A stretch of 33,551 nucleotides of DNA from an uncultured Bacteroidales bacterium (GTDB lineage: Bacteria; Bacteroidota; Bacteroidia; Bacteroidales; Muribaculaceae). The notes beneath the pieces are model-generated. The model made no database searches, was not told the DNA's origin, and was given only the letters and a program-made list of their open reading frames with translations. Where the stretch lies: the NCBI GenBank assembly GCA_902792435.1, contig CADAZN010000038.1:1-33551 (forward strand), given 5' to 3'. The position numbers and the translations under genes are program-made. Positions 3,442 through 32,830 of the stretch are shown here, one piece after another (positions within the stretch are counted from its first letter, which is position 1; each line of letters opens with the position of its first letter).

Positions 3442-6276
3442 CTATTTCTTGTTACCGAGCAGGATGTTGTAGATTGCAGTAATATCGACGGTTGTGATGA
3501 AACCGTCGCCGTCCACATCGCTGGTGGCGATGAAGGTTTCATCACCGTTAAGCAGGTAGTTGTAGATGGCGGTGATGTCGATGGTTGTCACCTCGCCGTC
3601 TCCGTTAACGTCGCCATACACTCCACCGGCAAGGGTGGTAACCTCCATCTTGTTGGACCACTCGCCATGAATGTTGCCCCTCACGGCACGCACGTCAAAG
3701 AGGTAGGTGGTGGCGGGCTGCAATCCAGTGACGGCATAACTAAGGCCGGTAATGCCCGAGATAATCCTTTCGTCAAGGTCTCTGGTCGAGGATTTGGGTA
3801 TCACGCGCAGTGTGTAGCTTGTGGCGCTCGGGCACTGAGTCCAGTTGGCGGTGAATCCGTCGGCCTTCACCTCGGTTGCCGCTGTGGCTATAGGTGTCTC
3901 AAGGGCATTGAGCGGAGTCTTGAAGCCTATCTCATAGAGCTTGGAGAAGTCGTTGAAGATTGCCACCTTATAAATGACGCTCGGGTCGAGAGGGTCCGAT
4001 GCCAGCACCTCTGCGGTGTTGGTAGTGGTGTTTTGCTTGGTCTGAATAGCGGTTTCGCTTGGGGTGACGGTGCCGTCGTCATTGAGGGTGCACTCATAGA
4101 TGTACATCTTCAACGGATAGGTCGAGTTGCTGCGGTTCACTGCCAGCTGCTTAACTTGCGAGCAGTTGGTCACAAAGAACGTTTGGCAATCCTCGCTCCA
4201 GTCGGCAAATTGTCCCTCGCCGGCAAAATAGCTTGCGCTGCCGGGGAACACGTCGATGGCTGTCCATGTTGCTGAGCCAGTCCTCACAGTGCCCGCATTG
4301 GTGAACCAGTTCTGTGTGGCGTCGGCCTTTATCACGCCATAGTTAGAAACGGTTAGCCAAGCGCATTCTTGGCTTTCATACTCGGTATATCTGTAGAGAT
4401 TACGAATGTCGCTGGTGTTCCATCCTGCCTCATCGATGGTCTCATATTTTGAGATGTCGAGATATGGGTCACTTGCGGTGTTGCCTTCGTTGGCTTTTCC
4501 GCTGAGCTCAACTGTCACGCTCTCGGCACCATTGCTGCTAAGCACCAATGAGCCCGAGAATCGGCCCTCGACCGATGGCTGGAACGTGACAGCCACCTCA
4601 ACTGGGGTGTCGAGATTGACGCTGCTTTGAGGAATTGTCGTTGGCGAAACTATGAACACGCCGTTGTTGTCGTTGAGTGTCAATGTCACGTCGCTAGTGA
4701 GATATACGCCCTTGAGGCTGATTGTCTTGGTGATGGGGCGCTTGAGCGATGTGGTATAGTCGAGTGAAGTGGGCTCTACCATGAGGGTGGGCACATGTGG
4801 CCGTGCCACACCTGTGATGGGTACAACCACCGTCTCTACATCCTCGTCGGCACATGAGAGGGTGAGGGTCGCGCTGGTCGAGCCAGCCTGGGTGGGAGCA
4901 TAGGTGACAACCACGTCAACACCGCTTGCTGCCTCTTCGGCAGTGATGGTGGTGTGACTCACGCTGTAGGCATTATCGCCGCTGAACGCAACGTTGATGT
5001 TGCTCTCGATGTTGTGGGCTTTAATTCGCACCGCTTGGGTGTAGGTCTCGCCGGCAAAGCCCTGGAAGTCGACAGTAGAGGGCGTTGCCCTGATAATGCC
5101 TACCGAAGGCTGAACACCGATAATCATTATCTGATTCAGGTTGAAGTTGGCGCCTGTGTCATCGATAAAGGCATTCAAGGCACACCAGGCGTTGCCCTCA
5201 CCGCTCCAACCGAAGTTGACGTGATACTTGTTGGTGCTAGAGTCATAGCCGTCGACGTTGAAGGCGTGGCCACCAGCAGTGCCGGCAGTGCCAAGATAAA
5301 CTATAGGTCGTCCTTCTATTATCTCCTCTTGAATGAGAGCTGCCCAGCTGGCGTCGTTGAAATTTTCCTTTTGAACCATGCGAGTGGTTGCCTCATCGTA
5401 GCCAAAGCCTATGAACATATCGGCAATAATCTGGGCGTTGGCGGTGTAGATGCCGCTGCCTCCTGCCTCGGGAGTGCCATACTTCATGTGCTCGGCCTGA
5501 CCTACATAGCGCATCAGCGTGGCAACAGCATTGGCTTGAGCGGTAGTGTAGCCAGTGGCGTGAGAGCTGGTGTAGTCGTCAATCATGTTGTCCCAGTCAA
5601 AGGTTACAGCTGGCAAGGCAGGATAGGTGTAGTTCACGCTGGTCCATGTGCCTATTTCAAGAACTCCATCATAGGCAGGAACGGGACCAACCTGCTCAAC
5701 TGGATACTTCCAGTAGTAGAGAACCATCGATGCCGAGGTGGCTGGGCAACCGGTGTAGCACATATAGTTTGTGCCGTTGTAGTTAAACTTGCATTGGTTC
5801 CAGTAAGGCGCCTCTTGATCCCAAAGGGCCGTGAGCAGTGGACCAATGGTTGTCTCATTTGCTTTTGGCGACTTGTGGGTCGTGAGCTTGTTGACCTTGG
5901 CTTCGGGGTGAGCGAGCAGCCAGTCGAGCTGCACCTTGTAGCCGTCGAGCCACGCCTGCATGTTGGCGGGAATGCGGTCGAGGTTTAGAGGCTTGTCGCC
6001 ATAGGCGAGGATTTCCTCGGCGCGGTCGTCGCCCGACACGATGACATAGGATGTCTCGGTGTTGAAGATGTAATACACAGGAGCCTTGGCGGTCTCGCCC
6101 ATCTCGGTCTTGATAAGTGTGACATCGGCAGCTCCAGGTGCCATAATCTTGCCGGCATACACTTTTTGAGCAAGGTATTGCTCGGCCTTAGTCTTAGCTG
6201 TTAATACATCAACAGGTGCTGCCATCAGCTGCAACGCAACTGCCATGACAGTGAGTAGTGATAATAGCTTTTTCAT
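3442..6276 (-). CDS. C10 (streptopain-like) cysteine peptidase with dockerin
   Basis: 944 residues from the ATG at 6276. An upstream in-frame extension to 6414 is rejected because it would bury the signal peptide MKKLLSLLTVMAVALQLMAA and overlap the promoter. A C10 propeptide spans about 21-125 (YYIFNTETSYVIVSGDDRAE). The catalytic domain at about 140-390 has the nucleophile Cys177 in CYTGCPATSAS, His337 in GGHAFNVDGYD and Trp357 in VNFGWSGE. Two Ig-like repeats (about 400-490 and 495-595), the TIDEAG module (about 599-789), an uninterrupted FN3 domain (about 790-885) and a dockerin (about 887-944) follow. It is a secreted zymogen whose propeptide is presumably removed by proteolysis, as in SpeB. 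It is the only chassis protein here whose FN3 has no inserted domain. The peptidase family is certain; the substrate is unknown. Confidence 0.93.
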   Translation of the reverse strand: MKKLLSLLTVMAVALQLMAAPVDVLTAKTKAEQYLAQKVYAGKIMAPGAADVTLIKTEMGETAKAPVYYIFNTETSYVIVSGDDRAEEILAYGDKPLNLDRIPANMQAWLDGYKVQLDWLLAHPEAKVNKLTTHKSPKANETTIGPLLTALWDQEAPYWNQCKFNYNGTNYMCYTGCPATSASMVLYYWKYPVEQVGPVPAYDGVLEIGTWTSVNYTYPALPAVTFDWDNMIDDYTSSHATGYTTAQANAVATLMRYVGQAEHMKYGTPEAGGSGIYTANAQIIADMFIGFGYDEATTRMVQKENFNDASWAALIQEEIIEGRPIVYLGTAGTAGGHAFNVDGYDSSTNKYHVNFGWSGEGNAWCALNAFIDDTGANFNLNQIMIIGVQPSVGIIRATPSTVDFQGFAGETYTQAVRIKAHNIESNINVAFSGDNAYSVSHTTITAEEAASGVDVVVTYAPTQAGSTSATLTLSCADEDVETVVVPITGVARPHVPTLMVEPTSLDYTTSLKRPITKTISLKGVYLTSDVTLTLNDNNGVFIVSPTTIPQSSVNLDTPVEVAVTFQPSVEGRFSGSLVLSSNGAESVTVELSGKANEGNTASDPYLDISKYETIDEAGWNTSDIRNLYRYTEYESQECAWLTVSNYGVIKADATQNWFTNAGTVRTGSATWTAIDVFPGSASYFAGEGQFADWSEDCQTFFVTNCSQVKQLAVNRSNSTYPLKMYIYECTLNDDGTVTPSETAIQTKQNTTTNTAEVLASDPLDPSVIYKVAIFNDFSKLYEIGFKTPLNALETPIATAATEVKADGFTANWTQCPSATSYTLRVIPKSSTRDLDERIISGITGLSYAVTGLQPATTYLFDVRAVRGNIHGEWSNKMEVTTLAGGVYGDVNGDGEVTTIDITAIYNYLLNGDETFIATSDVDGDGFITTVDITAIYNILLGNKK

Positions 6277-6529: not shown

Positions 6530-7993
6530 ATGAAACGATTATTTCTTCTCTTAGTGACAATGACGGCGTGCGTCGCTGCGTGGGCGGCCGAACCTTATGT
6601 GGTATATACCCCAGATAACACCACACTCACCTTTTATTACGGCACGAAACCCAGTGGGGCTTATGGTTTGAATGACGGGCAGTCTTTGACAGAATGGTAC
6701 GATATTGGCCCCTATGTAACGCGAGTGGTTTTCGACCCATCATTTGCGCAGGCCCGCCCCACCAGTACCGCTTACTGGTTTTCTGAGATGTATAAGCTCA
6801 CAACTATTATTGGTATAGATTATCTCAACACCAGCGAGGTGGAATATATGTCTTATATGTTCTCCAACTGCAAAAAACTAACGAACTTGGACTTGAGGGG
6901 ATTCAACACATCGAAAGTAACTATCTTTCAGCTCATGTTCAACTATTGCACTAATCTCACCTCTTTAGATTTGAGCAGTTTCAACACATCAAAAACGTTG
7001 ACTATGTTTAAAATGTTTTATGGATGTTCTAATCTCACCACCATCTTTGTGAGTAACAATTGGACTACACAAGCTTTATTTCCTTCTTATTCGAGTGACG
7101 TTTTCACGGACTGTACTAAACTCGTTGGCGGTGCAGGCACCACCTATGATCCCAACCATGTTGACTTTAATTATGCCCACATCGACGGTGGTCCCAGCAA
7201 TCCAGGCTACTTGACTAGCGCAACTAGCATAACTTACGACCTGTGGGTTAACGGAGTGCAGGTGACTGGTGCCAATTGCAACAATCTCAGCAGCATTGAA
7301 GGTGTGAGCGGCACTGTAACCTACAATCCATCGTCCAAGACTCTCACACTTGATAATGCCAGGCTGAGCTGTGGCGAGACAAGCAATGGAGCCTGCATAA
7401 GAAGTAGCATCGACGGACTGACCATTAATGTGAAGGGCACAAGTAGCATCTTAGTAACGCCATCTGGCACCAATATGAATGGGATGGTGCTGTCAAACAC
7501 CACGATAACAGGCACCGATACACTTGGCGTGCAAGGAAGGAAATCAGGCATCACGATAGTTAGTGGCAAAACCCTCACGGTTAACAATCTACATTGCTTG
7601 ATAGCCCGAGGCTCCTATGGCATTTATGCATCGAGCCCTACCAATACTCGACTGGTGATGAAGGGTAGCGGAACTAATGTTATTGCAACTGGCGGTTCGG
7701 GTGCGATACGCAACATGGAAGAATTGGTTTTGGAGGACGGGTTGAGAATCACCGAACCCGTTGGAGGGTATTTTGCGGGTGGAATCCTGTATGATGCCAG
7801 CGGCAATGTGGCGACTCGAGCTACCATCAGCGGCATGCTTGGCGATGTGAACGGTGACGGCACAGTGACAGCGGCCGACATTACAGCACTCTATGATGTC
7901 CTGCTCAACAATGACTACAGCCACGTTGTCAACGGTGACCAAACTGGCGACAACATCATCACCGCCGCCGACGTGACTGCATTGTTGCATTAG
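6530..7993 (+). CDS. DUF285 (BspA-like) repeat protein with truncated dockerin
   Basis: 487 residues with the signal peptide MKRLFLLLVTMTACVAAWAA. Residues about 60-230 hold 26-residue DUF285 repeats with the pattern LTSLDLSSFNTS..MF..C. A beta-rich section beginning YDLWVNGVQVTGAN (about 236-430) follows; it resembles the beta-helical carbohydrate-binding-like region found in many gut Bacteroidota proteins. The C-terminal dockerin (about 437-487) has loops DVNGDGTVTAAD and DQTGDNIITAAD but stops at ADVTALLH, so the last helix is shortened. It is a likely exported surface protein. It shares start region, signal peptide and dockerin with the next gene at 56 bases' distance, so the two are tandem duplicates and possibly co-transcribed. 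Confidence 0.88.
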   Translation: MKRLFLLLVTMTACVAAWAAEPYVVYTPDNTTLTFYYGTKPSGAYGLNDGQSLTEWYDIGPYVTRVVFDPSFAQARPTSTAYWFSEMYKLTTIIGIDYLNTSEVEYMSYMFSNCKKLTNLDLRGFNTSKVTIFQLMFNYCTNLTSLDLSSFNTSKTLTMFKMFYGCSNLTTIFVSNNWTTQALFPSYSSDVFTDCTKLVGGAGTTYDPNHVDFNYAHIDGGPSNPGYLTSATSITYDLWVNGVQVTGANCNNLSSIEGVSGTVTYNPSSKTLTLDNARLSCGETSNGACIRSSIDGLTINVKGTSSILVTPSGTNMNGMVLSNTTITGTDTLGVQGRKSGITIVSGKTLTVNNLHCLIARGSYGIYASSPTNTRLVMKGSGTNVIATGGSGAIRNMEELVLEDGLRITEPVGGYFAGGILYDASGNVATRATISGMLGDVNGDGTVTAADITALYDVLLNNDYSHVVNGDQTGDNIITAADVTALLH

Positions 7994-8049: not shown

Positions 8050-9741
8050 ATGAAACGATTACTTTTTCTTTTAGTGACAATGACGGCGTGCATCGCTGCA
8101 TGGGCAGCCGAAGGCTATGCGGTTTACACCCAAAGCAACCACACCCTCACCTTCTACTACGGCACAAAACCCAGTGGGGCTTTTGGCCTGAATAGTGGCA
8201 TCAACTATCCAGAATGGTACAATTACGGCACCTATGCCGCTGTAGAGCGAGTGGTCTTTGATCCATCGTTTGCCCAAGCACGCCCCACCACTACCGCTTA
8301 CTGGTTTTACGAAATGGAAAACCTCACCACCATCACCGGATTGAACTGCCTCAATACCAGCGAAGTAACAAATATGCTTGGAATGTTCTGGGGTTGCAAA
8401 TACCTCACCTCACTTGATTTGAGTAGCTTCAACACGGCAAATGTGACCGACATGAGGTTTATGTTTAATAAATGCGAAAATCTGACCTCACTTGATGTGA
8501 GTAGCTTCAATACTGCAAATGTGATTAATATGTTGGCAATGTTCTGGGATTGCAAAAACCTCACCTCACTTGATGTGAGCAGCTTTAACACTTCAAATGT
8601 TACCGACATGAGTGCTATGTTCGAAAACTGTGGCAAACTTACCTCACTTGATGTGAGTAGCTTCAACACGGCAAATGTGACCGACATGAGGTTTATGTTT
8701 AATAAATGCGAAAATCTGACCTCACTTGATTTGAGTAGCTTCAACACAGCAAATGTGACCAACATGAAAAACATGTTCGAGAATTGTGATGAACTTAAAA
8801 CAATTACCGTGGGCAGCACTTGGAGCACAGAGGCAGTAACCAGCTCAACAGATATGTTCACTAATTGTTTCAAAATCGAGGGTGGTGCAGGAACCACCTT
8901 TAGTTCAAGTTACACCGATGCCTCTTATGCCCATATCGACGGCGGCCCCAGCAATCCAGGCTACCTCACGGGTGCAACCTACGATTTGTGGATTAATGGA
9001 GTGCAGGTCACCTGCGCTAACCAGAACGGCGTTACCGGTCCTGGCATCAGTGGCTCGGTAACCTACGACGCCAGCATCAACACCCTGACGCTCAACAACG
9101 CCACTATCGACCGGAGGGGGCTCTCGGTGTGCGCCATCGAAAATGCCTATGGTGGCCCTACCAACCTAAAAATTAAACTTGTGGGCGACAACAAGATTCT
9201 TGCTAACACAAATAACATTGCCATAAACGCAAAAGAATCGCAGGGCTTTACACTTTATGGCTCAGGTTCGCTCCATTGTGGTGGTGCCCTCTACCTTGAT
9301 GCACGCGACCACTTGACAAACGATGCCACAGTGTCCTACATCAAGGATTGCTCGGTTTATTTTGATAATATTTTGTCTGAAGATTATGAAGAGTGCCTTA
9401 CCATCAACAATGCCGATGTGACTACCGAATACTTAGATGTTGGCAGTGACCACAACGGTTACAAAGGTCTGAATCTCGTCAACTGCTATGTGGCATCACC
9501 CGCCAATGGTGTCGTGGGCAATGGTGGATGCATCATGGTTAATGGCGATTACTGGGATGGTCATGTCGAAATCAAGCGCTCGGGCGTTCCTGGTGACGTG
9601 AACGGCGACGGCACAGTGACAGCGGCCGACATCACAGCACTCTATGATGTCCTGCTCAACAATGACTACAGCCACGTTGTCAACGGTGACCAAACTGGCG
9701 ACAACATCATCACCGCCGCCGACGTGACTGCAAATGCATAA
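8050..9741 (+). CDS. DUF285 repeat protein with truncated dockerin, tandem paralogue
   Basis: 563 residues, signal peptide MKRLLFLLVTMTACIAAWAA. It has more DUF285 repeats than its neighbour: about five 26-residue units between residues 100 and 260 (LTSLDVSSFNTANVTDM..MF..C). It then has the same YDLWINGVQVT beta-rich section and a dockerin (about 515-563). The dockerin's two loops match those of the upstream gene almost base for base, but the protein ends ADVTANA, six codons short of a normal second helix. The identical upstream sequence (ACTCAAAAACGA.ATACTTATG) supports tandem duplication. The role is inferred to be surface binding; no enzymatic motif is visible. Confidence 0.88.
   Translation: MKRLLFLLVTMTACIAAWAAEGYAVYTQSNHTLTFYYGTKPSGAFGLNSGINYPEWYNYGTYAAVERVVFDPSFAQARPTTTAYWFYEMENLTTITGLNCLNTSEVTNMLGMFWGCKYLTSLDLSSFNTANVTDMRFMFNKCENLTSLDVSSFNTANVINMLAMFWDCKNLTSLDVSSFNTSNVTDMSAMFENCGKLTSLDVSSFNTANVTDMRFMFNKCENLTSLDLSSFNTANVTNMKNMFENCDELKTITVGSTWSTEAVTSSTDMFTNCFKIEGGAGTTFSSSYTDASYAHIDGGPSNPGYLTGATYDLWINGVQVTCANQNGVTGPGISGSVTYDASINTLTLNNATIDRRGLSVCAIENAYGGPTNLKIKLVGDNKILANTNNIAINAKESQGFTLYGSGSLHCGGALYLDARDHLTNDATVSYIKDCSVYFDNILSEDYEECLTINNADVTTEYLDVGSDHNGYKGLNLVNCYVASPANGVVGNGGCIMVNGDYWDGHVEIKRSGVPGDVNGDGTVTAADITALYDVLLNNDYSHVVNGDQTGDNIITAADVTANA
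8411..8800 (+). repeat. 78-bp tandem coding repeats (DUF285)
   Basis: Units recur every 78 bases in frame. The copy at 8420-8496 is identical over 77 bases to 8654-8730, exactly three periods away, while the units in between differ. This points to recent internal recombination. Confidence 0.85.
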
Positions 9742-9819: not shown

Positions 9820-12800
9820 TTAATTGCCAAGCAGGATGTTGTAGATGATGGTGATGTCAACGGTTGTGATTTCACCGTCGCCATCCACGTCGCTGGTGGC
9901 GAGGTAGGTCTCGTCACCATTGAGCAGGTAGTTATAGATGGCGGTGATGTCGATGGTTGTCACCTCTCCGTCGCCATTCACGTCGCCATAGATGCCACCT
10001 GCAAGGGTGGTGACAGTGATTAAGTTGGACCACTGGCTCTCCTTAGCTCCGAACACTGCCTTCACATCGTAGAAATAGGTCGTGCCAGGATCAAGGTCAA
10101 GAACCTTGTAGCTGTTGGTTGTGATGCCAGTAAATATCACTCCGTCAAAGTCAATCGACCTTGTAGCTCCAGCACGCTCACCATCGATGATGTGGATGCT
10201 TGTAAGCACTACGCGCTTGCCATTGGCCGTTGTCTCAAACTTAATCTTCTGGCCAGCGGCAGCGTTGCAGTCAAGCACTACAGTGTAGGTTGCCTCGTTG
10301 TTGTCGGGAAGAGTCACTGTCTCACTTGCGTTGCCGCAAGAAACCTTGAGGTTGCAGTTGGTGTCGTTGTTGAAGGCCTTGGCTTTGAAGGTGACAGTGA
10401 CCTTGTTGTCGGTCAATGTGAGTCCAGGAGAAGTCAAAGTTCCTAACGAGGAGCCTGTGCCCAAGCGCGCACCGCCAACAGCCTCATAGACCTTAGAGCC
10501 TGTCCACCCCTCATTGTCCATATAGTTGTCGAGGGTGTTGCCTATATCAATAGAGCCAGCCTTGGTGAAGCCTGCGAAGCTTTCGGTGAGAATGTCGTAG
10601 TTCTTGGGCACAACGCGCAGGTTGTAACTGTCGGCGCCCTCGCATGGCATCCAATTGGCGACAAAGCTGTTATTGGCAATCTCGGTGGCGGCAACAGCCA
10701 CAGGCACGGGATAACTTGAGAGCGGAGTCTTGAAACCTATCTCATAAAGGTAAGAGTAGTCGTTGTAGATGTGAACCATGTAAATCTTGGATGCATTGAG
10801 CTCGCTCGAAGTTATTACCTCGGTGGTATTGTAAACCGAACTTTGCTTGGTGTCGATAGGCGTGGTTCCAGCGGTTACCGAGCCATCGGCATTGAGTGTG
10901 CACTCATAGATGCGCATAATCAATGGATAAGTAGAGCTGCGGTTGTAGGCATACTGCTTCACTTGAGTGCAGTTGGTCACATAGAAATACTGGTTGAGGC
11001 CATTCCAGTCGCAGGCATAGCTGGTCTTTGAGCCAAAATAGCTATCGTCGCCCAGGAAAATGTCGGTAGCATTCCATGAAGTGCTATAAGATTCACTGAT
11101 GTTGTTGTCGAACCATTCCTGCGTTGAGTTTGCCATCATAACGCCATAGTTTGAAACGGTGAGCCAAGCGCAGTCTTGGTCCTCACGCTCGGTGTATCGA
11201 TACAGATTCTGGATGTCGCTCGTGCTCCAGCCGGCCTCATCGATTGTCTCATACTTGCTGAGGTTAAGATATGGATCACTTGCGGTGCCTCCATCAACAA
11301 TCTGACCCATGAGTTGAACGGTTTTGCTCTCAGCACCATTGCTGGTAAAGGTGAGTGCTGCGTTGTATTCACCCACGGTAGCCGAGTTGAAAGTAACAGT
11401 TACAGTAACAGGGGTGTGGGCATCGGTGCTGCTTTGAGATATGCTCAATGGCGACACAGTGAAAGCTCCATTCGGGTCGTTGAGCGACACCGTCACGTCG
11501 TTGGTCAAGAACGCGCCAATGAGGTTGATGGTTTTGGTCACTGGCGACGATGCAATAGTAGCAAACGTCAGGGTGTCGGGCTCAACAAGCAGAGTTGCCA
11601 CACGGGGTAGAGCCTCTCCGGTAATTGGCACTGTAACTGTCTCCGCATCATCGTCGGCGCAGCTCAAGGTAAGGGTTGCCTCGCTGTTGCCTGCCTGGGT
11701 TGGGGCATAGGTTACGGTCACATCAAAGCCGCTCGCCGCTTGCTGGGGAGTGATGGTGGTAGCGTTAATGCTATAACATTCGGAACCAGTCAAAGCTACG
11801 TTTATATTACTCTCGATGTTGACGGCATTGACTTTCACAACCTCGGTGTAGGTCTCCCCATCAAAGCCTTTGAAGGCTACCTCTCCGGGGTTGGCAATGA
11901 TTCGGCCCACGGGTGGCTGAATGCCGAGCACCATGCGTTGATTGTCGCTGAAGGTGTAGCCACGGGCTGAGAAAGCGTTCATGGCATACCAGCTGTTGCC
12001 GTTTCCGCTCCAGCCAAAATTCACGTGATACTTGTTGAGACCGGAGTCATAGCCGTCGACGTTGAAGGCATGGCCTCCAGCGCCGCCAATGTCAACGCCA
12101 CAGTACACCACAGGACGATGATTTATCATCTCCTCTTGCACCATCTGTGCCCATTGCTCTTCGCTATAGTCGCTCTTTTTCACAAAGCGGCAAATGGAAG
12201 CGTCATAGCCGAAGGCAATGTACATGTCGGCGATAACCTGGGTGTCGCTGGTGAAGATGCCACTGCCCTCGGTGCCATACATCATGTGTTCCTTTTGGCC
12301 CACGTAGCGCATGAGCGTTGCGACAGCTGCCGCCTGCTCGGGGGTATAGCCAGTGGCCATGGGGCTGGTGTAGTCGTCAATCATGTTGTCCCAGTCAAAT
12401 GTGACAGCTGGCAAGGCAGGGTAGGAAAAGCTAACGCTGTTATACTCGCTAATGTCGAGAGTGCTGGTGTAGGAAGGGATTGGGCCCACTGGTGTGGTGG
12501 GGTATTTCCAGTAATACAGCACCATCGATGCCGAGGTGGCAGCACAACCGGTATAGCACTCATAGGTGGTGCCATTGTAGGTGAAATGACACTGGTCGTT
12601 GTAGGGCGTTCCTTGGTGCCAAAGGGCTGTCAACAATGGCCCTATGGGATAATTGCCTTTGAGCATAGGCGACTTGATGGCCGTGGGCTTGTCGACCTTC
12701 TCATCGGGGTGGGTGAGCAGCCAGTCGAGCTGATGCTTGTAGTTGTCGAGCCATGCCTGCATGTTCTTGGGCATTCCCTCAAGTTTCAGGGGTCTGTCGC

Positions 12801-13077
12801 CCACAGCGAGGATTTCCTCGGCGCGGTCGTCGCCCGACACAATCACAAACGAGGTTGCTGTGTTGAAGATGTAATACACAGGAGTTACGGCATTGTCGCC
12901 CATCTCGGTCTTGATGAGCTTGGCATCGGTGGCTCCAGGGGCCATGAATTTACCTGCATACACCTTGTCGGCAAGGTACTGCTGGGCTTTCATCTTAGCT
13001 GTTGAGACATCAACAGGCGCTGCCATTAGTTGCACTGCAACCATGATGACAGTCATGATGGATAGGAGTTTTCTCAT
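9820..13077 (-). CDS. C10 cysteine peptidase with domain-inserted FN3 and dockerin
   Basis: 1085 residues. Signal peptide MRKLLSIMTVIMVAVQLMAA and propeptide about 21-125. The catalytic domain has Cys178 (ECYTGCAATSAS), His336 (GGHAFNVDGYD) and Trp356 (VNFGWSG). Two Ig-like repeats span about 395-595 and the TIDEAG module about 597-787. The FN3 domain is split: its first strands (FVANWMPCEGADSYNLRVVP, about 800-826) are separated from its last strands (TNSYKVLDLDPGTTYFYDV, about 976-1026) by an inserted beta-rich domain at about 827-975 (bases about 10153-10599). The dockerin is at about 1030-1085. It is a secreted protease zymogen with a presumed binding domain carried on the FN3. It has its own promoter and is convergent with the DUF285 pair. 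The catalytic assignment is firm; the inserted domain's ligand is unknown. Confidence 0.93.
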   Translation of the reverse strand: MRKLLSIMTVIMVAVQLMAAPVDVSTAKMKAQQYLADKVYAGKFMAPGATDAKLIKTEMGDNAVTPVYYIFNTATSFVIVSGDDRAEEILAVGDRPLKLEGMPKNMQAWLDNYKHQLDWLLTHPDEKVDKPTAIKSPMLKGNYPIGPLLTALWHQGTPYNDQCHFTYNGTTYECYTGCAATSASMVLYYWKYPTTPVGPIPSYTSTLDISEYNSVSFSYPALPAVTFDWDNMIDDYTSPMATGYTPEQAAAVATLMRYVGQKEHMMYGTEGSGIFTSDTQVIADMYIAFGYDASICRFVKKSDYSEEQWAQMVQEEMINHRPVVYCGVDIGGAGGHAFNVDGYDSGLNKYHVNFGWSGNGNSWYAMNAFSARGYTFSDNQRMVLGIQPPVGRIIANPGEVAFKGFDGETYTEVVKVNAVNIESNINVALTGSECYSINATTITPQQAASGFDVTVTYAPTQAGNSEATLTLSCADDDAETVTVPITGEALPRVATLLVEPDTLTFATIASSPVTKTINLIGAFLTNDVTVSLNDPNGAFTVSPLSISQSSTDAHTPVTVTVTFNSATVGEYNAALTFTSNGAESKTVQLMGQIVDGGTASDPYLNLSKYETIDEAGWSTSDIQNLYRYTEREDQDCAWLTVSNYGVMMANSTQEWFDNNISESYSTSWNATDIFLGDDSYFGSKTSYACDWNGLNQYFYVTNCTQVKQYAYNRSSTYPLIMRIYECTLNADGSVTAGTTPIDTKQSSVYNTTEVITSSELNASKIYMVHIYNDYSYLYEIGFKTPLSSYPVPVAVAATEIANNSFVANWMPCEGADSYNLRVVPKNYDILTESFAGFTKAGSIDIGNTLDNYMDNEGWTGSKVYEAVGGARLGTGSSLGTLTSPGLTLTDNKVTVTFKAKAFNNDTNCNLKVSCGNASETVTLPDNNEATYTVVLDCNAAAGQKIKFETTANGKRVVLTSIHIIDGERAGATRSIDFDGVIFTGITTNSYKVLDLDPGTTYFYDVKAVFGAKESQWSNLITVTTLAGGIYGDVNGDGEVTTIDITAIYNYLLNGDETYLATSDVDGDGEITTVDITIIYNILLGN

Positions 13078-16507: not shown

Positions 16508-16608
16508 TGTCAATAAATGGTTTTGTTATTGAATAATTGTGTATTTTAGTAGTGACTACTGTTTTTGATTATTTTCTCACAAAACAATCGTGCTTTACAA
16601 AAAGCCGT

Positions 16609-16813: not shown

Positions 16814-18205
<1,392 letters not shown>

Positions 18206-21279: not shown

Positions 21280-21292
21280 GCACAGCGACATC

Positions 21293-21454: not shown

Positions 21455-21490
21455 ACAAAAAATTAAAGCGCTTCAATGAGCGCTTTAATT
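21455..21490 (-). terminator. Terminator of the dockerin gene 21518-23203
   Basis: An 11-bp perfect stem, AATTAAAGCGC (21461-21471) / GCGCTTTAATT (21480-21490), reads on the minus strand into AATTTTTTG. Confidence 0.85.
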
Positions 21491-25366: not shown

Positions 25367-28300
25367 TTATTTCTTCTTAGCACCGAGTATCGTGTTATAA
25401 ACAACAGTAACATCGACTGAGGTAATGGCACCGTCGCCGTCTTGGTCGCCGTTGACCATGCCCTCGGTCTCACCGTTGAGGAGGTAGTTGTAGAGGATAG
25501 TGATATCCACTGTGTTAACCTCGCCATCGGCGTTCACGTCGCCAGCAAGGCCGCCGCCAAGTGTAGTGAAGATGGTCGATGCGGTCCAATTGGTGAGAAT
25601 CGATTCATACTTGCCTTGAACCTGTACCTCGTAGGTGGTGTTAGGTGTCAGTCCTGCGAGGGTGTAAGGACTGGTGACGCCATTAACATAGTTCCACTCT
25701 GCTGCCTGCTTGGTGGTGAGAGTGATGGCATCGATGAACATGAAGTCTTTGTCGGTGCAGTTATAGTGACGGAAGGCAATATAACCAGTTTTACCTTTAT
25801 AACTGCTCAAATCAATAGATACTTCAGTCCATTCGGTTGTGTTGGGCGAAAGCATGTCATCGGTAACTGGCACAAAATCACTCACATTTTTACCAGTGGT
25901 AGAAACATAGATGCGATAATTCTCTTGATAATTATTGCCATCGTCCATTATGTAATATTTGAGAGTTCCACCAAGGTCTGCAATTTGAGGACTGATTAAC
26001 CATTGGTCGGGAGTGACAGCACCCACTGAGTTGCTTATCCAGCTTCTTGACATCACAACATAAGAACCGTCTTTGGCGGTAAATTGTCCGCTGAAGTTGC
26101 TGGTTAAATCAACTGTCTGCCAGTTGTAAGAGTCGCCATCGGTGTTTATGAGAGTCCAATTTCCAAGTCCGTTCTCAAAATTCTCAGAGAATGCAACTTC
26201 TTGCTCACCTGCCTCTGCATCATACTCTCTCCAACGCAAGTTCCAGCCATCATTGTTCTCACCTGGAGTCCAAGTAATGTTGGCGGTAGTGGTTGAAGGA
26301 TCGGCCTCCACGTTGATAGGTATCGCGGGAAGCGTCACGTTGAGGTCGGTCTTGAAGCCAATCTCATAGAGGCGAGAATAGTCGTTGTAGATTCTCACCT
26401 TGTAGATCTTGCTTGGATCCAAAGCGCCCGAAGAGAGCACCTCGGCTTGATTGGTGGTCTGGCTTTGCTTGTTGACAACAGCTGTAGTTCCAACGGTGAG
26501 TGTGCCGTCGGCATTGAGGGTGCACTCATAGATTTGCATCTTCAATGGGTAAGGATTGCCCGAATTGTAAGAAGATTGGATGTTGTAAGAAAGCTGACTT
26601 ACCTCACTACAGTTGGTCACATAGAAGTTTTGCCAAGCCTCGTTCCAGTTGCAGTAATAGGCTGTGCCAGTAAAGTAATTGCTGCTGCCCAGGAAGATGC
26701 CGGTTGCATTCCAAGTCTCGTTGCCCGACTTGGCTGTGCCCTCAAAGTCAAACCAGTTCTGGTTGGCGTCAACCTTTTGTGCGCCATAGTAAGAGAGTGT
26801 GAGCCAAGCGCAAGCGTCACTTGGATACTCGGTGTAGCTGTAAATCTTTGACATACCGCTCACTGTGGCACCTGCCTCACCAATTGTGTTATACTTGGCG
26901 ATGTTCAGGTAAGAGTCGCTAGCGTTGCCGCCCTCGGCAGCCGAGGCGGTGAGTTGAACGGTCTTGCTCTCGGCACCATTGCTGGCCAGCACGAGTGAGC
27001 CGGTGAAGTTGCCCTCGTTGGCCGAGTTGAACGAAACGGTAACAGGCACACCATTGGCTGCGTTGGCAGCGGTGATGGTGGTTGGAGTTACGCTGAACAC
27101 ACCATTGTTGTCGTTCAGAGTAACAGTAATGTTATTTGTCAAGAACAGACCAGTAACGTTGATGGTCTTAGTCACTGTTGACGACAAGTTTGCCGACATG
27201 CTAACCGAAGTTGGATCAACATTGATAGTTGGAATCTTGGCTTGGGCAGTACCAGTAACATTCACAGTCACATTGTCGGCACCACTGCTGGCGAGAGTAA
27301 TGGTTGCGTTAGCATTGCCTGCACTGGTGGGCTTATAGGTTACTGTAACCTGAACACCATTGGCTGCATTGGCAGCGGTGATGCTTGTGGGAGATACAGT
27401 AATATTGTTCGAACCTTGCTTGGTGATGGTGATGTTGCCCTCAAGGTTGTAACCAGTAACGGTGAAGGTCTTGGTGTAGGTATCGCCCACATAGCCCTCA
27501 AATGCGAGGCTTGCAGGATCAACGGTGATTTGTGGACCAAGGGCTCCTGCGGGAGGAGCAATACCGATAATCATAGCTTCACCATAGTTGAATGTGTAAG
27601 AGCCTCCACCCTGTCCGGTAGAGTTATTGCCAGTGGTGAAGTTGTGCAGAGTGCAGTAGCCATTGTCTTCGCCACTCCAACCCCAGTTTACATAATATTT
27701 ACCGCTTGTGTCGCATCCAAACACGTTGAAAGCATGACCTCCAGCACTTGGGTCCGAAGCGAGATACTCGATGGGACGGCCGGCATGCAACTCGGCAAGC
27801 ATCCAGGTGTTCCACTGAGAATCGGTATAGTTCTGGTTGTAACCTGCATATCCTGAGGTGAGGGTGAGCAGCTGAGCATCGGTGTAACCAAAGGTGTGGC
27901 AAGCCTCGAGAATGTCGGGGTCGTAGGCACCACTACCGCTGGTAGTGTACTGCATGTTGCAAGCTTGACCCACATAGCGCATCAGCCATGACACGGCTTC
28001 AGCCTGGGTAGAGTTGTAGCTGTAGTTGGTGGGACCGGTGTACTCATCGAGCATATTAGCCCAGTCGGCAGCCTTTTCACTCAGGGCAGGGGCAGTGACA
28101 CCGCCACTTACCGATACTTTGGGTAACGCCGGATAGGTAGCAGGCCATTTAAAGATATAGAAGCACATACTCAGTGAGGTTGCTGGGCAGCCAGTGTAGG
28201 TGTGAGTGCTTCCACTGGTGGGGGTATGGTTCCAGTAAGGTTCGCCCTGATCCCAATTGGCGTTGGTCAGTGGAGCAACAGCTGTTGTTGCTTTAGGAGT

Positions 28301-28717
28301 GTAGCCGTTGGGCTTCAGTGTGCCAGCCTTGAGGCCGTCAATCTGATATTTGTACTTGTTGAGCAACCACTGCATTGCGGGGGGGATGTCGTTGATGTCG
28401 ATGGTTCCTTCCTCGCCATACATCAGGATCTCGGGAGCTAGGTCATCGCCCGACACCACTACATAGGCTTTGTCGGAGTTGAAGATGTAGTAGTCGGTTG
28501 CTTCGGGTTTTGCTACCGACGCCTCGGCCTTGACGAGCTTTAGGTTGCTGGTGGCAGCTGCTCTCAAGCGGCCGTTGGCAACTTGCTTGGCAAGGAATGA
28601 CGTTGCTGCATTCTTGGCGGTAGCCAGGTCAACGTCGGCTGCCTGCAACTGTGTCGACATGCACAGCACGAGTGCTAATGCCGACAACATTTTTAGTCGA
28701 TTAAATAGTTGTTTCAT
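25367..28717 (-). CDS. C10 cysteine peptidase with FN3-inserted cleaved-adhesin domain and dockerin
   Basis: 1116 residues, signal peptide ending CMSTQLQAA. The C10 propeptide is at about 28-130. The catalytic domain has Cys177 (YTGCPATSLSM), His328 (GGHAFNVFGCD) and Trp347 (VNWGWSGE), closer to SpeB in its NWGWSG motif than the other C10 copies. Ig-like repeats span about 395-595 and the TIDEAG module about 598-790 (here NTIGEAG). The FN3 (about 797-1050) is interrupted by a jelly-roll domain at about 840-1000: SENFENGLGNWTLINTDGD, DQWLISPQI and IAFRHYNCTDKDFMFID are the marks of the cleaved-adhesin/choice-of-anchor J family known from gingipains. The dockerin is at about 1057-1112 and is of the same subtype as the two upstream peptidase-less proteins. 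It is a secreted protease zymogen and the most divergent of the four C10 genes. Confidence 0.92.
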   Translation of the reverse strand: MKQLFNRLKMLSALALVLCMSTQLQAADVDLATAKNAATSFLAKQVANGRLRAAATSNLKLVKAEASVAKPEATDYYIFNSDKAYVVVSGDDLAPEILMYGEEGTIDINDIPPAMQWLLNKYKYQIDGLKAGTLKPNGYTPKATTAVAPLTNANWDQGEPYWNHTPTSGSTHTYTGCPATSLSMCFYIFKWPATYPALPKVSVSGGVTAPALSEKAADWANMLDEYTGPTNYSYNSTQAEAVSWLMRYVGQACNMQYTTSGSGAYDPDILEACHTFGYTDAQLLTLTSGYAGYNQNYTDSQWNTWMLAELHAGRPIEYLASDPSAGGHAFNVFGCDTSGKYYVNWGWSGEDNGYCTLHNFTTGNNSTGQGGGSYTFNYGEAMIIGIAPPAGALGPQITVDPASLAFEGYVGDTYTKTFTVTGYNLEGNITITKQGSNNITVSPTSITAANAANGVQVTVTYKPTSAGNANATITLASSGADNVTVNVTGTAQAKIPTINVDPTSVSMSANLSSTVTKTINVTGLFLTNNITVTLNDNNGVFSVTPTTITAANAANGVPVTVSFNSANEGNFTGSLVLASNGAESKTVQLTASAAEGGNASDSYLNIAKYNTIGEAGATVSGMSKIYSYTEYPSDACAWLTLSYYGAQKVDANQNWFDFEGTAKSGNETWNATGIFLGSSNYFTGTAYYCNWNEAWQNFYVTNCSEVSQLSYNIQSSYNSGNPYPLKMQIYECTLNADGTLTVGTTAVVNKQSQTTNQAEVLSSGALDPSKIYKVRIYNDYSRLYEIGFKTDLNVTLPAIPINVEADPSTTTANITWTPGENNDGWNLRWREYDAEAGEQEVAFSENFENGLGNWTLINTDGDSYNWQTVDLTSNFSGQFTAKDGSYVVMSRSWISNSVGAVTPDQWLISPQIADLGGTLKYYIMDDGNNYQENYRIYVSTTGKNVSDFVPVTDDMLSPNTTEWTEVSIDLSSYKGKTGYIAFRHYNCTDKDFMFIDAITLTTKQAAEWNYVNGVTSPYTLAGLTPNTTYEVQVQGKYESILTNWTASTIFTTLGGGLAGDVNADGEVNTVDITILYNYLLNGETEGMVNGDQDGDGAITSVDVTVVYNTILGAKKK

Positions 28718-28888: not shown

Positions 28889-28915
28889 CTGTTGAATGAT
28901 ATCACACTGATAGTC

Positions 28916-31900
28916 TTACTTCTTCTTTGAAGCGAGCAGGATGTTGTAGATTACTGTGATGTCAACTGTGGTGACTTGTCCGTCGCCATCTACGTCGCTG
29001 GTGGCAAGGTAGGTCTCGTCGCCGTTGAGCAGATAGTTGTAGAGGCAAGTGATGTCAACAGTAGTAACCTCTCCGTCGCAGTTCACATCGCCAACGATGC
29101 CACCAGCAAGGGTGGTAACCATAATCTTGTTAGACCAGTTACTTGACTTAGGACCAAATACTGCCTTCACGTCATAGAAGTAGGTAGTGGCTGGGTCAAG
29201 GCCAGTAACGTTGTAGCTGTTGGTTGTGATGCCAGTGATTGTAATGCCATCAAGGTCGATTGACTTGGCAGCGCCAGCATGCTCGCCATCGATGATGTGG
29301 ATGCTGGTGAGTATCACACGCTTGCTATTGGCGGTGGTCTCAAATTTAATCTGCTGGTTGGCTGCAGCGTTGCAGTCAAGCACTACAGTGTAAGTTTCCT
29401 CGGTGCTGCTGGCAACTGTAACAGTCTCACTTGCATTGCCACAAGAAACCTTGAGGTTGCAGTTAGTGTCGTTATTGAAGGCCTTAGCCTTGAACTGAAC
29501 TGCTACCTTGTTTTCGGTCAATGTGAGTCCAGGAGAGGTGAGAGTGCCAACCGAAGAGCCTGTGCCTAAACGAATGCCGCCGATATTCTCATAAAGCTTA
29601 GAGCCTGTCCAACCTGCATTGTCCATGTACTGATCAAGAGTTGAACTTAAATCAGTAGAGCCTGCCTTGGTGAACTTCGAGAATCCCTCGGTGAGGATGT
29701 CGTAGTTCTTAGGAATGATGCGCAGGGTGTAGCTGTCGGCGCCATCGCATGGATTCCAGTTGGCGGTGAAGGTAGTAGCGCCAATGTTGGTTGCTGCGGT
29801 AGCTATTGGAGCTGGGAGTCCGTTGATAGGAGTCTTGAATCCAATCTCATAAAGCTTAGAATAGTCGTTGAAGATAGCAATCTTGTAAACCTTCTCTGGG
29901 TCGAGAGGATCAGAAGAAATAACCTCCTTGCTAGTGGTAGTGTTCTGCTTGGTTTGAACTGCAGTGTTGCTAGCAGTGATAGTGCCGTCGGCATTAACAG
30001 TACACTCATAGATGTACATCTTCAATGGATAAGAAGTGTTGCTGCGGTTCTCAGCAAACTGCTTAACCTGAGAGCAGTTGGTAACGTAGAATGTCTGGTA
30101 ATCCTCGTTCCAGTCGGTGTAGTAAGCATTGCTGTTGCCAAAGTAGGGTGAGCTGCCCAAGAATACATCGGTAGCGCCCCATGACTCAGTGCCGGTCTTT
30201 TCGGTGCCTGCGATGGTGAACCAGTTCTGGGTGGCGTCGCTCTTGAGAGCACCATAGTTAGAAACGGTGAGCCAAGCGCACTCGTCGTCTTCATACTCGG
30301 TGTAATTGTAGATAGTGGTCATGCCACTCACGTTAGCGCCAGCCTCGTCGATAGTCTCATACTTAGCGATGTCGAGATATGGATCGGCAGCAGTGCCCTT
30401 GTCGGTGGCCTTAGCAGTGAGTTGAACTGTCTTGGTCACAGCGCCATTGCTGGTGAGGGTGAGCGATGCGGTGTATTCGCCCTCTTCGGCCGAAGTGAAG
30501 GTCACGTTCACGTTAACTGGAGTGTCGATGCCAGTGTTGCTTGCCGAAATGGTAGTAGGAGATACTGTGAACTTGTTGTTCTGGTCGGTGAGGGTAACGG
30601 TGATGTCGTTAGTGAGGAACAGGCCGTTAACCTTCACAGTCTTGGTAATTGGAGTAGACAGCTTAGCGTTGAAGTTAAGAGTCTCGGGATCGGTAAGGAT
30701 GGTTGGAACACGTGGCTGAGCCACACCAGTGATGGTCACGGTCTGTGTCTCGGCCTCTGCACTTGTGAGAGTCAGTGTTGCATTGGTCTCGCCAGCTGCG
30801 GTAGGAGCGTAAGTAACGGTTACGTTAACGCCACTGTAAGCATCCTCAGGGCTGATAGTGGTAGGAGTTACGCTATAAATGTTTGAACCGCTCTTAGCGA
30901 TATTGATGGGCTGAGTGAGGTTATAACCCTTAACTAAGATAGTCTCGGTATAAGTCTCGCCTGCATATCCCTGGAAGTTTACATTGTCGGGCTTAGCAAC
31001 GATGGTTGGACCTTGATGCTGGAGGATGTACTCGATACCGTCAAGGGCGTTGATGATACCATGTCCACGAGACATTACAGGGCTAGAAGCACTAGCGGGA
31101 TAAGCTGTTGCAGTCTCAGCAATCACTTCCTTCACGCGGTCAACGTCGAGAGTTGGGTCGGCCTGCAGATACAGGGCTACCACACCAGCGGCGCAAGGAG
31201 TTGCCATTGATGTTCCACTCATCTGTCCCCAATTGTAGGTCTGGCCGTTGTAGGTCGTTGACCAAGAGACTGACTGGTAAGAATCATAGCCATTAACCGA
31301 CGAAATCACATAGTGTCCAGGAGCGGTGATGAATGGCTGGTTAACGCCGTTGAAGTCGGTACCATAGCTTGAGAAGTAAGCCACATCGCCTTGGCCGTAG
31401 CCATCGCTAGAGCGTGATGCCTGAGCACCCACACTGATGACCTGAGGACATGTCATGTCGTCGCACATAGAGCCCTCGTAGGTTCCTGGGGTGATGGTGT
31501 AGCCACTCACGCTGCCCGACGATGAGCTAAGTGTGCTGTACCAGCAGTCGGTATAAACGTTGATAGTGTTGCCAGCTTGGCCTTTGATAACATAGGTTGC
31601 TGCCGACTCGCTACTCTCGATATACAGGTTGTAGCGGTTGTTGAAGGCATCCACGCCACCCGAAACAGTGACGTTGCCAAAGCTACCGCTGGTCATCCAG
31701 TCGCTCTGTGAGCTGCCGATGATAACCTTGATTTGAAGCTCATCGCTAGTGCTGTTCCAGATGTCGCAAGCACCGGTAGCCGATCCCCACCAGCTGCCCG
31801 AAACGTTGTTGGTGACAGCCATGTAGTCGCTGGCGCTTGAGAGGGTTTTGTGAGCGTGACCGATGATGTCGGCCTCGTTACCTGCGGCAAGCAGAATCAC

Positions 31901-32830
31901 TGCGCCGTAGGTGTTGGCAACCTCGCTATAGGCACGGCTGATGATGCTGGTGCCGTCGTGAGGACCAATGTCGCTACCCAAGCTGATGCTGATTACACAG
32001 GGCTTGCCAAGTTGCTGAGCATACCAACCAATGTACTTGGCTGAGCTCATAATGGCATTGTCGGTAAGTGAAGAACCGCAACCTGCGAGAATCAGGTCGG
32101 CCTCGGGAGCCATACCAGAATAGTTGCCTACATGCGAACCAGCAGCGATACCCGAGGTGTGAGTACCATGGCTCTCGCCATTGTCGTCGCAAGTAAGGTT
32201 GGCAATCTGGCTTGGGGTAGTGTACTGATAACCCATGAGCTGAACACCGTCGATAGTAGCCTTGGTGCCGCCATTAGCGCTTGTTGCATTAGGCATGTAA
32301 ACCGCTTTCACGCGGGTGTTGCCATTCTCATCAAGAAAAGCGCGGTGGTTGAATTGGATACCGTCGTCGATAAGACCAACAACCACACCTTGTCCGGTAT
32401 AGCCTTGTGGAAGGCCATAGTTGGTGCCGTCCCATGCCTTGTCGGCGTTAACGATGCCTTTGGCTACGTCGGTGAGCAGTCGTGCGTTGCGTGCAACACC
32501 CACTTGCTTAACGCCTTTAAGACGTGCTACGCTTTCTATTTTGCTTACAGGAATGCTGGCAGTGACAAAGTCGCTGAACTTACCAGTAACTTTCACTCCG
32601 TTAGCCTCGAGTTCGGCTATCGAAGATCCATTGAGGGTGATGAAGCATTCAACATACTCCACACCATTAAGGGTTTTGGGCATGGCAAGAACCGACTTGC
32701 CATCAGGAGCCTGAGCCACGGCATTGGCACGCTGCTGCAGGAACACTCGTGTTGGGGCACTTAGCTTATCGCTAGCTAGCATAGCCAACGACACACTTGC
32801 CGCCATCAGGATTAGCAGTAATTTTTTCAT
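28916..32830 (-). CDS. Subtilisin-family (S8) serine protease on the TIDEAG/FN3/dockerin chassis
   Basis: 1304 residues, signal peptide MKKLLLILMAASVSLAMLAS. A propeptide-like region at about 25-120 includes YVECFITLNG and VARLKGVKQVGV, an I9-like ending. The S8 domain spans about 125-610 with the full triad: Asp155 in VVVGLIDDGIQ, His221 in ESHGTHTSGIAAG, Ser541 in GQMSGTSMATP, plus oxyanion Asn318 in AAGNEAD. An extra beta-rich section at about 340-450 sits between the Asn and Ser motifs. Two Ig-like repeats (about 610-805), the TIDEAG module (about 811-1001), an FN3 split by the same insert as in 9820-13077 (insert about 1043-1190), and a dockerin (about 1246-1300) follow. The C-terminal half is highly similar to the C10 proteins although the catalytic head is unrelated, which shows domain swapping. 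It is a secreted endoprotease that could also activate the C10 zymogens; that link is speculative. Confidence 0.94.
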   Translation of the reverse strand: MKKLLLILMAASVSLAMLASDKLSAPTRVFLQQRANAVAQAPDGKSVLAMPKTLNGVEYVECFITLNGSSIAELEANGVKVTGKFSDFVTASIPVSKIESVARLKGVKQVGVARNARLLTDVAKGIVNADKAWDGTNYGLPQGYTGQGVVVGLIDDGIQFNHRAFLDENGNTRVKAVYMPNATSANGGTKATIDGVQLMGYQYTTPSQIANLTCDDNGESHGTHTSGIAAGSHVGNYSGMAPEADLILAGCGSSLTDNAIMSSAKYIGWYAQQLGKPCVISISLGSDIGPHDGTSIISRAYSEVANTYGAVILLAAGNEADIIGHAHKTLSSASDYMAVTNNVSGSWWGSATGACDIWNSTSDELQIKVIIGSSQSDWMTSGSFGNVTVSGGVDAFNNRYNLYIESSESAATYVIKGQAGNTINVYTDCWYSTLSSSSGSVSGYTITPGTYEGSMCDDMTCPQVISVGAQASRSSDGYGQGDVAYFSSYGTDFNGVNQPFITAPGHYVISSVNGYDSYQSVSWSTTYNGQTYNWGQMSGTSMATPCAAGVVALYLQADPTLDVDRVKEVIAETATAYPASASSPVMSRGHGIINALDGIEYILQHQGPTIVAKPDNVNFQGYAGETYTETILVKGYNLTQPINIAKSGSNIYSVTPTTISPEDAYSGVNVTVTYAPTAAGETNATLTLTSAEAETQTVTITGVAQPRVPTILTDPETLNFNAKLSTPITKTVKVNGLFLTNDITVTLTDQNNKFTVSPTTISASNTGIDTPVNVNVTFTSAEEGEYTASLTLTSNGAVTKTVQLTAKATDKGTAADPYLDIAKYETIDEAGANVSGMTTIYNYTEYEDDECAWLTVSNYGALKSDATQNWFTIAGTEKTGTESWGATDVFLGSSPYFGNSNAYYTDWNEDYQTFYVTNCSQVKQFAENRSNTSYPLKMYIYECTVNADGTITASNTAVQTKQNTTTSKEVISSDPLDPEKVYKIAIFNDYSKLYEIGFKTPINGLPAPIATAATNIGATTFTANWNPCDGADSYTLRIIPKNYDILTEGFSKFTKAGSTDLSSTLDQYMDNAGWTGSKLYENIGGIRLGTGSSVGTLTSPGLTLTENKVAVQFKAKAFNNDTNCNLKVSCGNASETVTVASSTEETYTVVLDCNAAANQQIKFETTANSKRVILTSIHIIDGEHAGAAKSIDLDGITITGITTNSYNVTGLDPATTYFYDVKAVFGPKSSNWSNKIMVTTLAGGIVGDVNCDGEVTTVDITCLYNYLLNGDETYLATSDVDGDGQVTTVDITVIYNILLASKKK

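What the first reader, a model, noticed from the sequence alone, without database searches (positions are those of the whole stretch)
3442..32830. Common chassis with exchangeable catalytic heads: a possible undescribed modular extracellular system
Seen: seven genes share a C-terminal chassis (TIDEAG module, FN3, dockerin, and in five of them two Ig-like repeats). The head is C10 in four (one broken), S8 in one and absent in two. C10 and S8 are unrelated folds, so the chassis has been joined to different enzymes. Known: dockerins bind cohesins to assemble enzyme complexes. Inference: the locus encodes a protease complex with catalytic and non-catalytic subunits attached to an unidentified cohesin-like partner.
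Basis: partly seen in the sequence, partly recalled or inferred. Interest (0 to 1): 0.8.

Follow-up and report, generated by a model that had tools for sequence, protein, structure and literature searches.

The report
Dockerin-tagged proteases with interchangeable parts
An uncultured gut bacterium carries a cluster of secreted proteases that share one body, swap their cutting heads, and end in a plug (dockerin) that in other bacteria clips enzymes onto a scaffold; its genome has about a hundred such plugged proteins and a few candidate sockets, but binding is untested.

Summary
Seven minus-strand genes share TIDEAG, an FN3-type domain and a C-terminal dockerin; five also have two Ig-like repeats; heads are C10 (four, one broken), S8 (one), none (two). 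Corrections: in six of seven the FN3 region is interrupted by a jelly-roll; three LRR genes in the window also end in dockerins; elsewhere the genome has an M6 head and a fifth C10 on the chassis. Exchange is real: on a TIDEAG tree heads change 15 times and tails 10 times. Among 61 relatives with complete ends, 44 end in a dockerin and 17 in a tail resembling a type IX secretion (T9SS) sorting domain, none in both. The locus is not a self-contained complex: the genome has 101 dockerin ORFs, 72 with the dockerin at the extreme C-terminus, and 7 of 7 sampled genomes of the genus are dockerin-rich. The missing partner has candidates: cohesin-like repeats in seven proteins, three with a T9SS-like tail. 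I think dockerins hold these proteases on surface-anchored cohesin-like proteins, as proposed for Ruminococcus albus and 'Ca. Stygibacter'. Binding was not tested, and one genome has 31 dockerins without a detected cohesin. New variant of a known kind.

The parts
3442..6276 (-). C10 protease: I69 propeptide, C10 head, two Ig-like repeats, TIDEAG (3916-4482), unsplit FN3, dockerin (3457-3618)
   Evidence: Pfam C10 4.5e-44, I69 2.9e-18, fn3 5e-8, Dockerin_1 2e-12; dockerin place; Cys177/His337
9820..13077 (-). C10 protease: head, two Ig-like repeats, TIDEAG (10726-11289), FN3 split by a jelly-roll, dockerin (9829-9990)
   Evidence: C10 1.4e-46, Dockerin_1 3.8e-13; inserted part matches NF052644 over residues 847-968, far below its cut-off
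15794..16513 (-). Broken C10 gene, N-terminal piece: signal-like start, I69 propeptide, start of C10 with the catalytic-type Cys
   Evidence: I69 2.5e-19, C10 6.5e-10; frame differs from the next piece
13299..15785 (-). Broken C10 gene, C-terminal piece: rest of C10 with the His, Ig-like repeats, TIDEAG (14205-14762), split FN3, dockerin (13314-13472)
   Evidence: C10 7.1e-22 (profile 91-193), Dockerin_1 5.1e-12
21518..23203 (-). Headless chassis protein: signal-like start, TIDEAG (22562-23143), split FN3-like part (alignment only), dockerin (21530-21688)
   Evidence: Dockerin_1 1.1e-11 is the only Pfam match; aligned
23403..25166 (-). Headless chassis protein: signal-like start, TIDEAG (24525-25106), split FN3-like part (alignment only), dockerin (23418-23579)
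   Evidence: Dockerin_1 3.5e-12 is the only Pfam match; 86.9% DNA identity to the other headless gene over 688 nt
25367..28717 (-). C10 protease whose FN3-like part holds a Cleaved_Adhesin / choice-of-anchor-J jelly-roll; TIDEAG (26348-26929), dockerin (25385-25546)
   Evidence: C10 1.2e-40, Cleaved_Adhesin 1.7e-25, Dockerin_1 1.5e-10; choice_anch_J 1.7e-29
28916..32830 (-). S8 subtilase on the same chassis: TIDEAG (29831-30397), FN3 (about 29102-29821) with nested jelly-roll (about 29285-29710), dockerin (28934-29092)
   Evidence: S8 1.7e-30, Dockerin_1 3.1e-11; AlphaFold2 model and structure comparison
1263..3194 (-). BspA-type LRR protein with List_Bact_rpt and a C-terminal dockerin (1278-1439); same tag, no TIDEAG
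   Evidence: LRR_5 2.8e-20, Dockerin_1 9.2e-11
6530..7993 (+). DUF285/PARCEL LRR protein with a C-terminal dockerin (7838-7984) that lacks the last helix
   Evidence: DUF285 1.4e-15, Dockerin_1 2e-5; DNA read
8050..9741 (+). DUF285/PARCEL LRR protein with a C-terminal dockerin (9589-9729) that lacks the last helix
   Evidence: DUF285 2e-39, Dockerin_1 1.7e-4 (22.1 bits, cut-off 22.9); DNA read

Best explanation
A family of secreted proteases built from exchangeable modules in an uncultured Bacteroidales genus. A head (C10 cysteine, S8 serine or M6 metallopeptidase, or none) sits on Ig-like spacers, a CBM/MAM-like jelly-roll (TIDEAG) and an FN3 domain that usually carries a second jelly-roll in a loop. 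The jelly-rolls probably bind substrate or glycans (inferred). The last module is a localisation tag: a dockerin, or a tail resembling a T9SS sorting domain. The dockerin most likely plugs into cohesin-like repeats, some on proteins that themselves carry a T9SS-like tail and would sit on the cell surface, some on a six-repeat scaffold-like protein with its own dockerin. With about 100 dockerin ORFs and 15 detected cohesin-like repeats in the genome, this would work more like R. albus surface anchoring than like a large cellulosome. Shown: architecture, repeated exchange of heads and tails, genome-wide dockerin set, cohesin-like repeats, SprA_N and PorV family matches. Inferred: that the two bind each other, that the assembly is on the surface, and how the dockerin proteins cross the outer membrane.
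Against: No binding was tested. Sequence support for the cohesin-like repeats is modest: PF00963 reaches its cut-off in 3 of 7 genus genomes. G001 has 31 dockerins and no A4 or PF00963 match (85% complete). Dockerins without cohesins are reported in other Bacteroidales (PMC10266427, passages). The genome-level association is partly circular: 27 of 35 repeat-bearing ORFs examined hold a dockerin in the same ORF, so the pair may be intramolecular, and related genomes are not independent. Fifteen of 101 dockerins sit behind the signal peptide, not at the C-terminus. None of 15 T9SS-like tails tested reaches TIGR04183's cut-off of 23 bits: seven score 17.1-22.3, eight do not match. The enzymes have no recognised outer-membrane export signal.
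Confidence: 0.5

Rival explanations
1. The C-terminal dockerin is itself the export or anchoring signal. In this genus it has taken over the job of the T9SS sorting domain on these proteins, recognised by a receptor of the secretion machinery rather than by cohesins.
For: Dockerin and T9SS-like tail occupy the same terminal position on one chassis, never together (0 of 61), and the tail changed about 10 times. 72 of 101 own dockerins lie within 11 aa of the stop. Genus genomes have 5-15 PF18962 matches each (E up to 0.01) but at least 49 dockerins each. G001 has 31 dockerins without detected cohesins.
Against: 15 dockerins are N-terminal. Five own proteins outside this chassis carry a dockerin and a T9SS-like tail together: C13 873 aa (PF18962 at its cut-off), C19 669 and 675 aa and C1 581 aa (below TIGR04183's cut-off), C22 1421 aa (tail by eye, no model match). 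So the two are not simple alternatives. The paired calcium loops of a binding dockerin are kept.
Confidence: 0.2
2. The dockerin is a calcium-stabilised terminal cap, or pairs only within its own polypeptide; the proteases act singly and no assembly exists.
For: Dockerin and cohesin-like domain lie in one ORF in 27 of 35 cases against 4 of 46 other ORFs of 200 aa or more in the same fetched stretches. 19 of 43 dockerin-positive genomes have no detected cohesin-like repeat.
Against: No cohesin or A4-type domain was found in the window proteases (Pfam; the A4 search of the own genome gives no place on C38), so there is nothing known to pair with internally. A mere cap would not be expected to be swapped for a T9SS-like tail at the same place or to be expanded in one genus.
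Confidence: 0.2
3. Ordinary tandem duplication and gene conversion of surface proteases, with no functional meaning in the shared C-terminus.
For: Window genes are 72-87% identical in stretches; one copy is broken.
Against: Exchange joins three unrelated peptidase types and two unrelated tails in many MAGs; two dockerin Asp columns are invariant in the 68-row alignment of own C-terminal-dockerin proteins.
Confidence: 0.1

Closest known systems
Cellulosome-like complex inferred in 'Ca. Stygibacter' (Cloacimonadota), PMC8542988 (passages read)
   Same: Signal-peptide enzymes with C-terminal dockerins, including an S8/S53 and a gingipain-like peptidase; cohesin protein inferred to be surface-attached by a CTD.
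   Different: There one 3755-aa scaffoldin with CBM2/CBM3; here several cohesin-like proteins, C10/S8/M6 heads on one shuffled chassis, 101 dockerin ORFs, tail swapped with a T9SS-like tail.
Dockerin-rich Bacteroidetes bins of the camel rumen, PMC6071333 (passages read)
   Same: Bins 49, 58 and 136 called Bacteroidetes and dockerin-rich (bin 49: 11 dockerins, 0 cohesins); bin 136 also listed among bins with two to four tandem cohesins; multiple dockerins in one protein noted.
   Different: Read there as lignocellulose degradation; the passages name no shared chassis, protease heads or tail exchange. Whether bin 136 is kin to this genus was not tested.
Dockerin-rich, cohesin-poor Ruminococcus albus, as described in PMC6118326 (passages read)
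   Same: Many dockerins and few cohesins; a single cohesin likely anchors isolated enzymes on the surface rather than building a cellulosome.
   Different: A Clostridiales with polysaccharide enzymes; here proteases and LRR proteins in a Bacteroidales with T9SS genes.
Mucinolysome of Limousia, PMC12997984 (passages read)
   Same: Gut bacterium, scaffoldins, dockerin-bearing peptidases among dockerin-bearing CAZymes.
   Different: Gram-positive, multi-cohesin scaffoldins, sortase motif on one scaffoldin, mucin GHs dominate.
C10 proteases of S24-7 Bacteroidales with T9SS tail, PMC4936053 (passages read)
   Same: Streptopain (C10) and M6 peptidases in related Bacteroidales; T9SS present.
   Different: A streptopain homolog is listed there among T9SS-tail proteins; here the window C10 genes end in a dockerin instead.
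Gingipain-type adhesin modules (recalled)
   Same: Cleaved_Adhesin jelly-roll in a secreted cysteine protease (25367-28717).
   Different: C10, not C25; jelly-roll nested in an FN3-like domain; dockerin at the end.

Membership tests
Peptidase family C10 | C10 domain with catalytic Cys and His, I69-type propeptide | tested here: met
   Three intact genes: PF01640 1e-40 to 1e-46, I69, Cys and His at C10 motif places (motif recalled). In the broken gene the two residues lie on separate frames.
Peptidase family S8 | Subtilase domain with Asp/His/Ser triad | tested here: met
   PF00082 1.7e-30; Asp155, His221, Ser541; motifs recalled
Dockerin type I | Two calcium-binding loops with helices | tested here: met
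   PF00404 over cut-off in the seven chassis genes; two loops in each. In the two plus-strand LRR genes the strict pattern finds one loop and the last helix is cut short.
Cellulosome / cohesin-dockerin assembly | Dockerin proteins and cohesin-bearing proteins in the same genome | tested here: met
   101 dockerin ORFs; PF00963 over cut-off in two proteins; 15 repeats by profile A4
Cellulosome / cohesin-dockerin assembly | Dockerin binds cohesin with high affinity | not testable with these tools
   No complex prediction or binding assay available
Cellulosome / cohesin-dockerin assembly | Scaffoldin with several cohesins plus an anchor or CBM | tested here: inconclusive
   C1 918 aa has six cohesin-like repeats and its own dockerin, no other credible NCBIfam domain (Pfam seen only as totals); own proteins with a T9SS-like tail carry one repeat each and score below TIGR04183's cut-off
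Cellulosome / cohesin-dockerin assembly | The dockerin enzymes of this locus attack plant cell walls | tested here: not met
   Of ten dockerin genes in the window, five have C10 or S8 heads (one broken), two have none, three are LRR proteins
T9SS substrate (type A) | C-terminal sorting domain TIGR04183/PF18962 | tested here: not met
   No match in the window chassis genes by Pfam or NCBIfam (the broken gene's pieces were not given); all seven end in a dockerin with 2-5 aa to the stop

The most novel reading that the evidence does not exclude
Piggyback export: dockerin-tagged proteases lack their own outer-membrane export signal and reach the surface by docking, in the periplasm, onto cohesin-like carriers that bear a T9SS-type tail, so one T9SS carrier family delivers a whole dockerin-tagged secretome. 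Swapping dockerin for a T9SS tail on the same chassis would then be a switch between indirect and direct export.
Probability: 0.2. Interest if true: 0.85.

Novelty: new variant of a known kind. Interest (0 to 1): 0.6.

Why it matters
A rumen Bacteroidetes genome paper found no cohesins or dockerins and called that consistent with other Bacteroidetes genomes (PMC5831590, passages); here one Bacteroidales genus carries dockerins by the dozen in 7 of 7 sampled genomes. If the dockerins work, this is a Gram-negative protease and LRR display system running beside T9SS, and the dockerin/T9SS-like-tail swap on one chassis gives a natural experiment for asking how enzymes reach and stay on the Bacteroidales surface.

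Full report
WHAT IS THERE. The window is a whole contig (C38, 33551 bases) of a 2.96 Mb, 56-contig genome, 93% complete. Seven minus-strand genes share a C-terminal chassis: TIDEAG module, FN3-type domain, dockerin; the four C10 genes and the S8 gene also have two Ig-like repeats. Heads are C10 in four (one broken into two frames), S8 in one, none in two. Added here: by alignment the FN3 region is interrupted in six of seven genes. In 25367-28717 the insert is a Cleaved_Adhesin domain; in the S8 gene and in 9820-13077 it matches part of NF052644 far below its cut-off (the broken gene was not given); in the headless genes it has no model match. Three LRR genes in the window also end in dockerins.

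EXCHANGE IS REAL. A scan of named genomes with the TIDEAG alignment found 98 relatives, kept the best 80 and gave 68 loci, all from Bacteroidota MAGs by title, many from rumen or omasum. Heads: S8 31 and C10 29 by blastp to the window heads, M6 4 by Pfam, none 3, one 5'-cut. Two further chassis genes in the own genome, on contigs C52 and C53, have a C10 and an M6 head by Pfam, and both are cut by the contig end in the same repeated stretch. On a careful maximum-likelihood tree of 72 TIDEAG modules (7 window, 65 of 68 loci; L036, L048, L070 left out) heads need 15 changes (least possible 3; at least 8 for S8 and 10 for C10 on supported branches). Within the window S8 and C10 genes share 81% DNA identity over 835 nt of chassis though their heads are unrelated, and about 155 nt at the dockerin of 25367-28717 is 84-87% identical to the headless genes, with no other match between them at that threshold.

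TWO TAILS. Of 68 relatives, 7 are cut, go off frame or stop early (L036, L048, L049, L054, L056, L067, L070); of the 61 with complete ends 44 end in a dockerin and 17 in another tail, none in both. The 17 look like T9SS sorting tails by eye; of nine tested with NCBIfam four score 17.1-22.3 bits against TIGR04183 (cut-off 23) and five do not match. Dockerin/other tail is 18/12 for S8, 22/2 for C10, 1/2 for M6, 3/0 for headless, 0/1 for L029. One contig (CACYVC010000007.1) carries both kinds (L016 and L028 against L030 and L062). On the tree the tail changes 10 times, 7 forced by supported branches.

GENOME AND GENUS. The own genome has 103 Dockerin_1 matches (99 over cut-off) in 101 ORFs. In 72 of 101 the dockerin match ends within 11 aa of the stop; 62 of these 72 have a signal-like start by a simple script; 15 dockerins sit right behind the signal peptide, 14 elsewhere. 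Pfam on 68 of the 72 (those of 150 aa or more; the 25 commonest of 45 families seen): LRR_5 in 10, C10 in 8, CotH in 7, CBM26 in 4, S8 in 3, alpha-amylase in 3, M6 in 2. In 119 genomes of the family, 7 of 7 of the own genus reach the 49-match scoring ceiling of that call, G001 of another genus has 31, 35 have 1-9, 76 have none. TIDEAG occurs in 2 of 295 genomes of the order at E 1e-10.

CANDIDATE SOCKETS. PF00963 is over its cut-off in two own proteins. A profile of ten repeats (A4) matches solved cellulosomal cohesins (6kgc E 2.3e-4, 5n5p E 9.5e-4) and finds 15 repeats in 7 own ORFs, ten of them its own rows: six in a 918-aa protein that ends in its own dockerin, two in a 428-aa and three in a 1135-aa protein likewise, and one each in ORFs of 581, 669, 675 and 1626 aa. 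The 669, 675 and 581 aa proteins run dockerin, cohesin-like domain, then a T9SS-like tail (19.2-20.9 bits, cut-off 23). Proteins of this design were seen in 7 of 7 genus genomes (tails outside the own genome by eye). SprA_N and PorV matches are present.

AGAINST. In 119 genomes dockerins and A4 repeats go together (24 of 30 against 19 of 89; Fisher p 1.5e-8; without the own genus 17 of 23 against 19 of 89, p 4e-6), but related genomes are not independent and 27 of 35 A4 ORFs examined hold a dockerin themselves. G001 has 31 dockerins, no A4 and no PF00963 match. PF00963 itself is over cut-off in 3 of 7 genus genomes. Dockerins were found in Bacteroides, Alistipes and Bacteroidales single-cell genomes of a cockroach study whose only cohesin was in a Christensenellales (PMC10266427, passages). 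Nothing here shows binding.

MECHANISM AND VERDICT. I favour calcium-dependent docking of these proteases onto a small set of surface-held cohesin-like proteins (0.5), because the two domain types co-occur, the calcium loops are kept, and the dockerin stands where a T9SS-like tail stands in relatives. The strongest rivals are that the dockerin is itself an export or anchoring signal (0.2) or only a cap or internal partner (0.2). Against the literature: 'Ca. Stygibacter' already offers dockerin peptidases with a CTD-attached scaffoldin (PMC8542988, passages); R. albus offers many dockerins and few cohesins (PMC6118326, passages); rumen Bacteroidetes bins with dockerins, one of them also listed with tandem cohesins, were reported (PMC6071333, passages). 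Hence new variant of a known kind, interest 0.6.

Noticed in passing
6530-7993 and 8050-9741 (+): Two DUF285/PARCEL LRR genes end in dockerins whose last helix is cut short (...TALLH...TANA), unlike the chassis genes.
   Followed up: partly
L138:1-4263 (own contig C22): A subtilase-like protein with an internal dockerin match and a T9SS-like tail (by eye) lies directly upstream of the 1135-aa three-cohesin protein.
   Followed up: partly
L132 (own contig C7, 74-90 kb): Six dockerin ORFs lie close together, a second dockerin cluster outside the window.
   Followed up: no
L136 and L153 (contigs C52, C53), last bases: Two chassis genes (C10 and M6 heads) are cut in an identical repeated stretch, probably an assembly fork.
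   Followed up: partly
21153-21471: Arrays of 9- and 27-bp tandem repeats in the gap downstream of the headless gene 21518-23203.
   Followed up: no
1065-1158 and 3250-3341: Two similar blocks of short tandem repeats (22- and 16-bp units), one on each side of the 1263-3194 gene.
   Followed up: no
16814-18205 (+): Protein with a sub-threshold linear amide C-N hydrolase match (CBAH) and a 6-bp tandem repeat at 18070-18109.
   Followed up: no
L179-L182 (genomes G042, G068, G099): Small proteins of 219-231 aa made of a signal-like start, one cohesin-like domain and a T9SS-like tail (tail by eye; two tested, no NCBIfam match).
   Followed up: partly
own genome, 15 ORFs: Dockerins placed right behind the signal peptide instead of at the C-terminus.
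   Followed up: no
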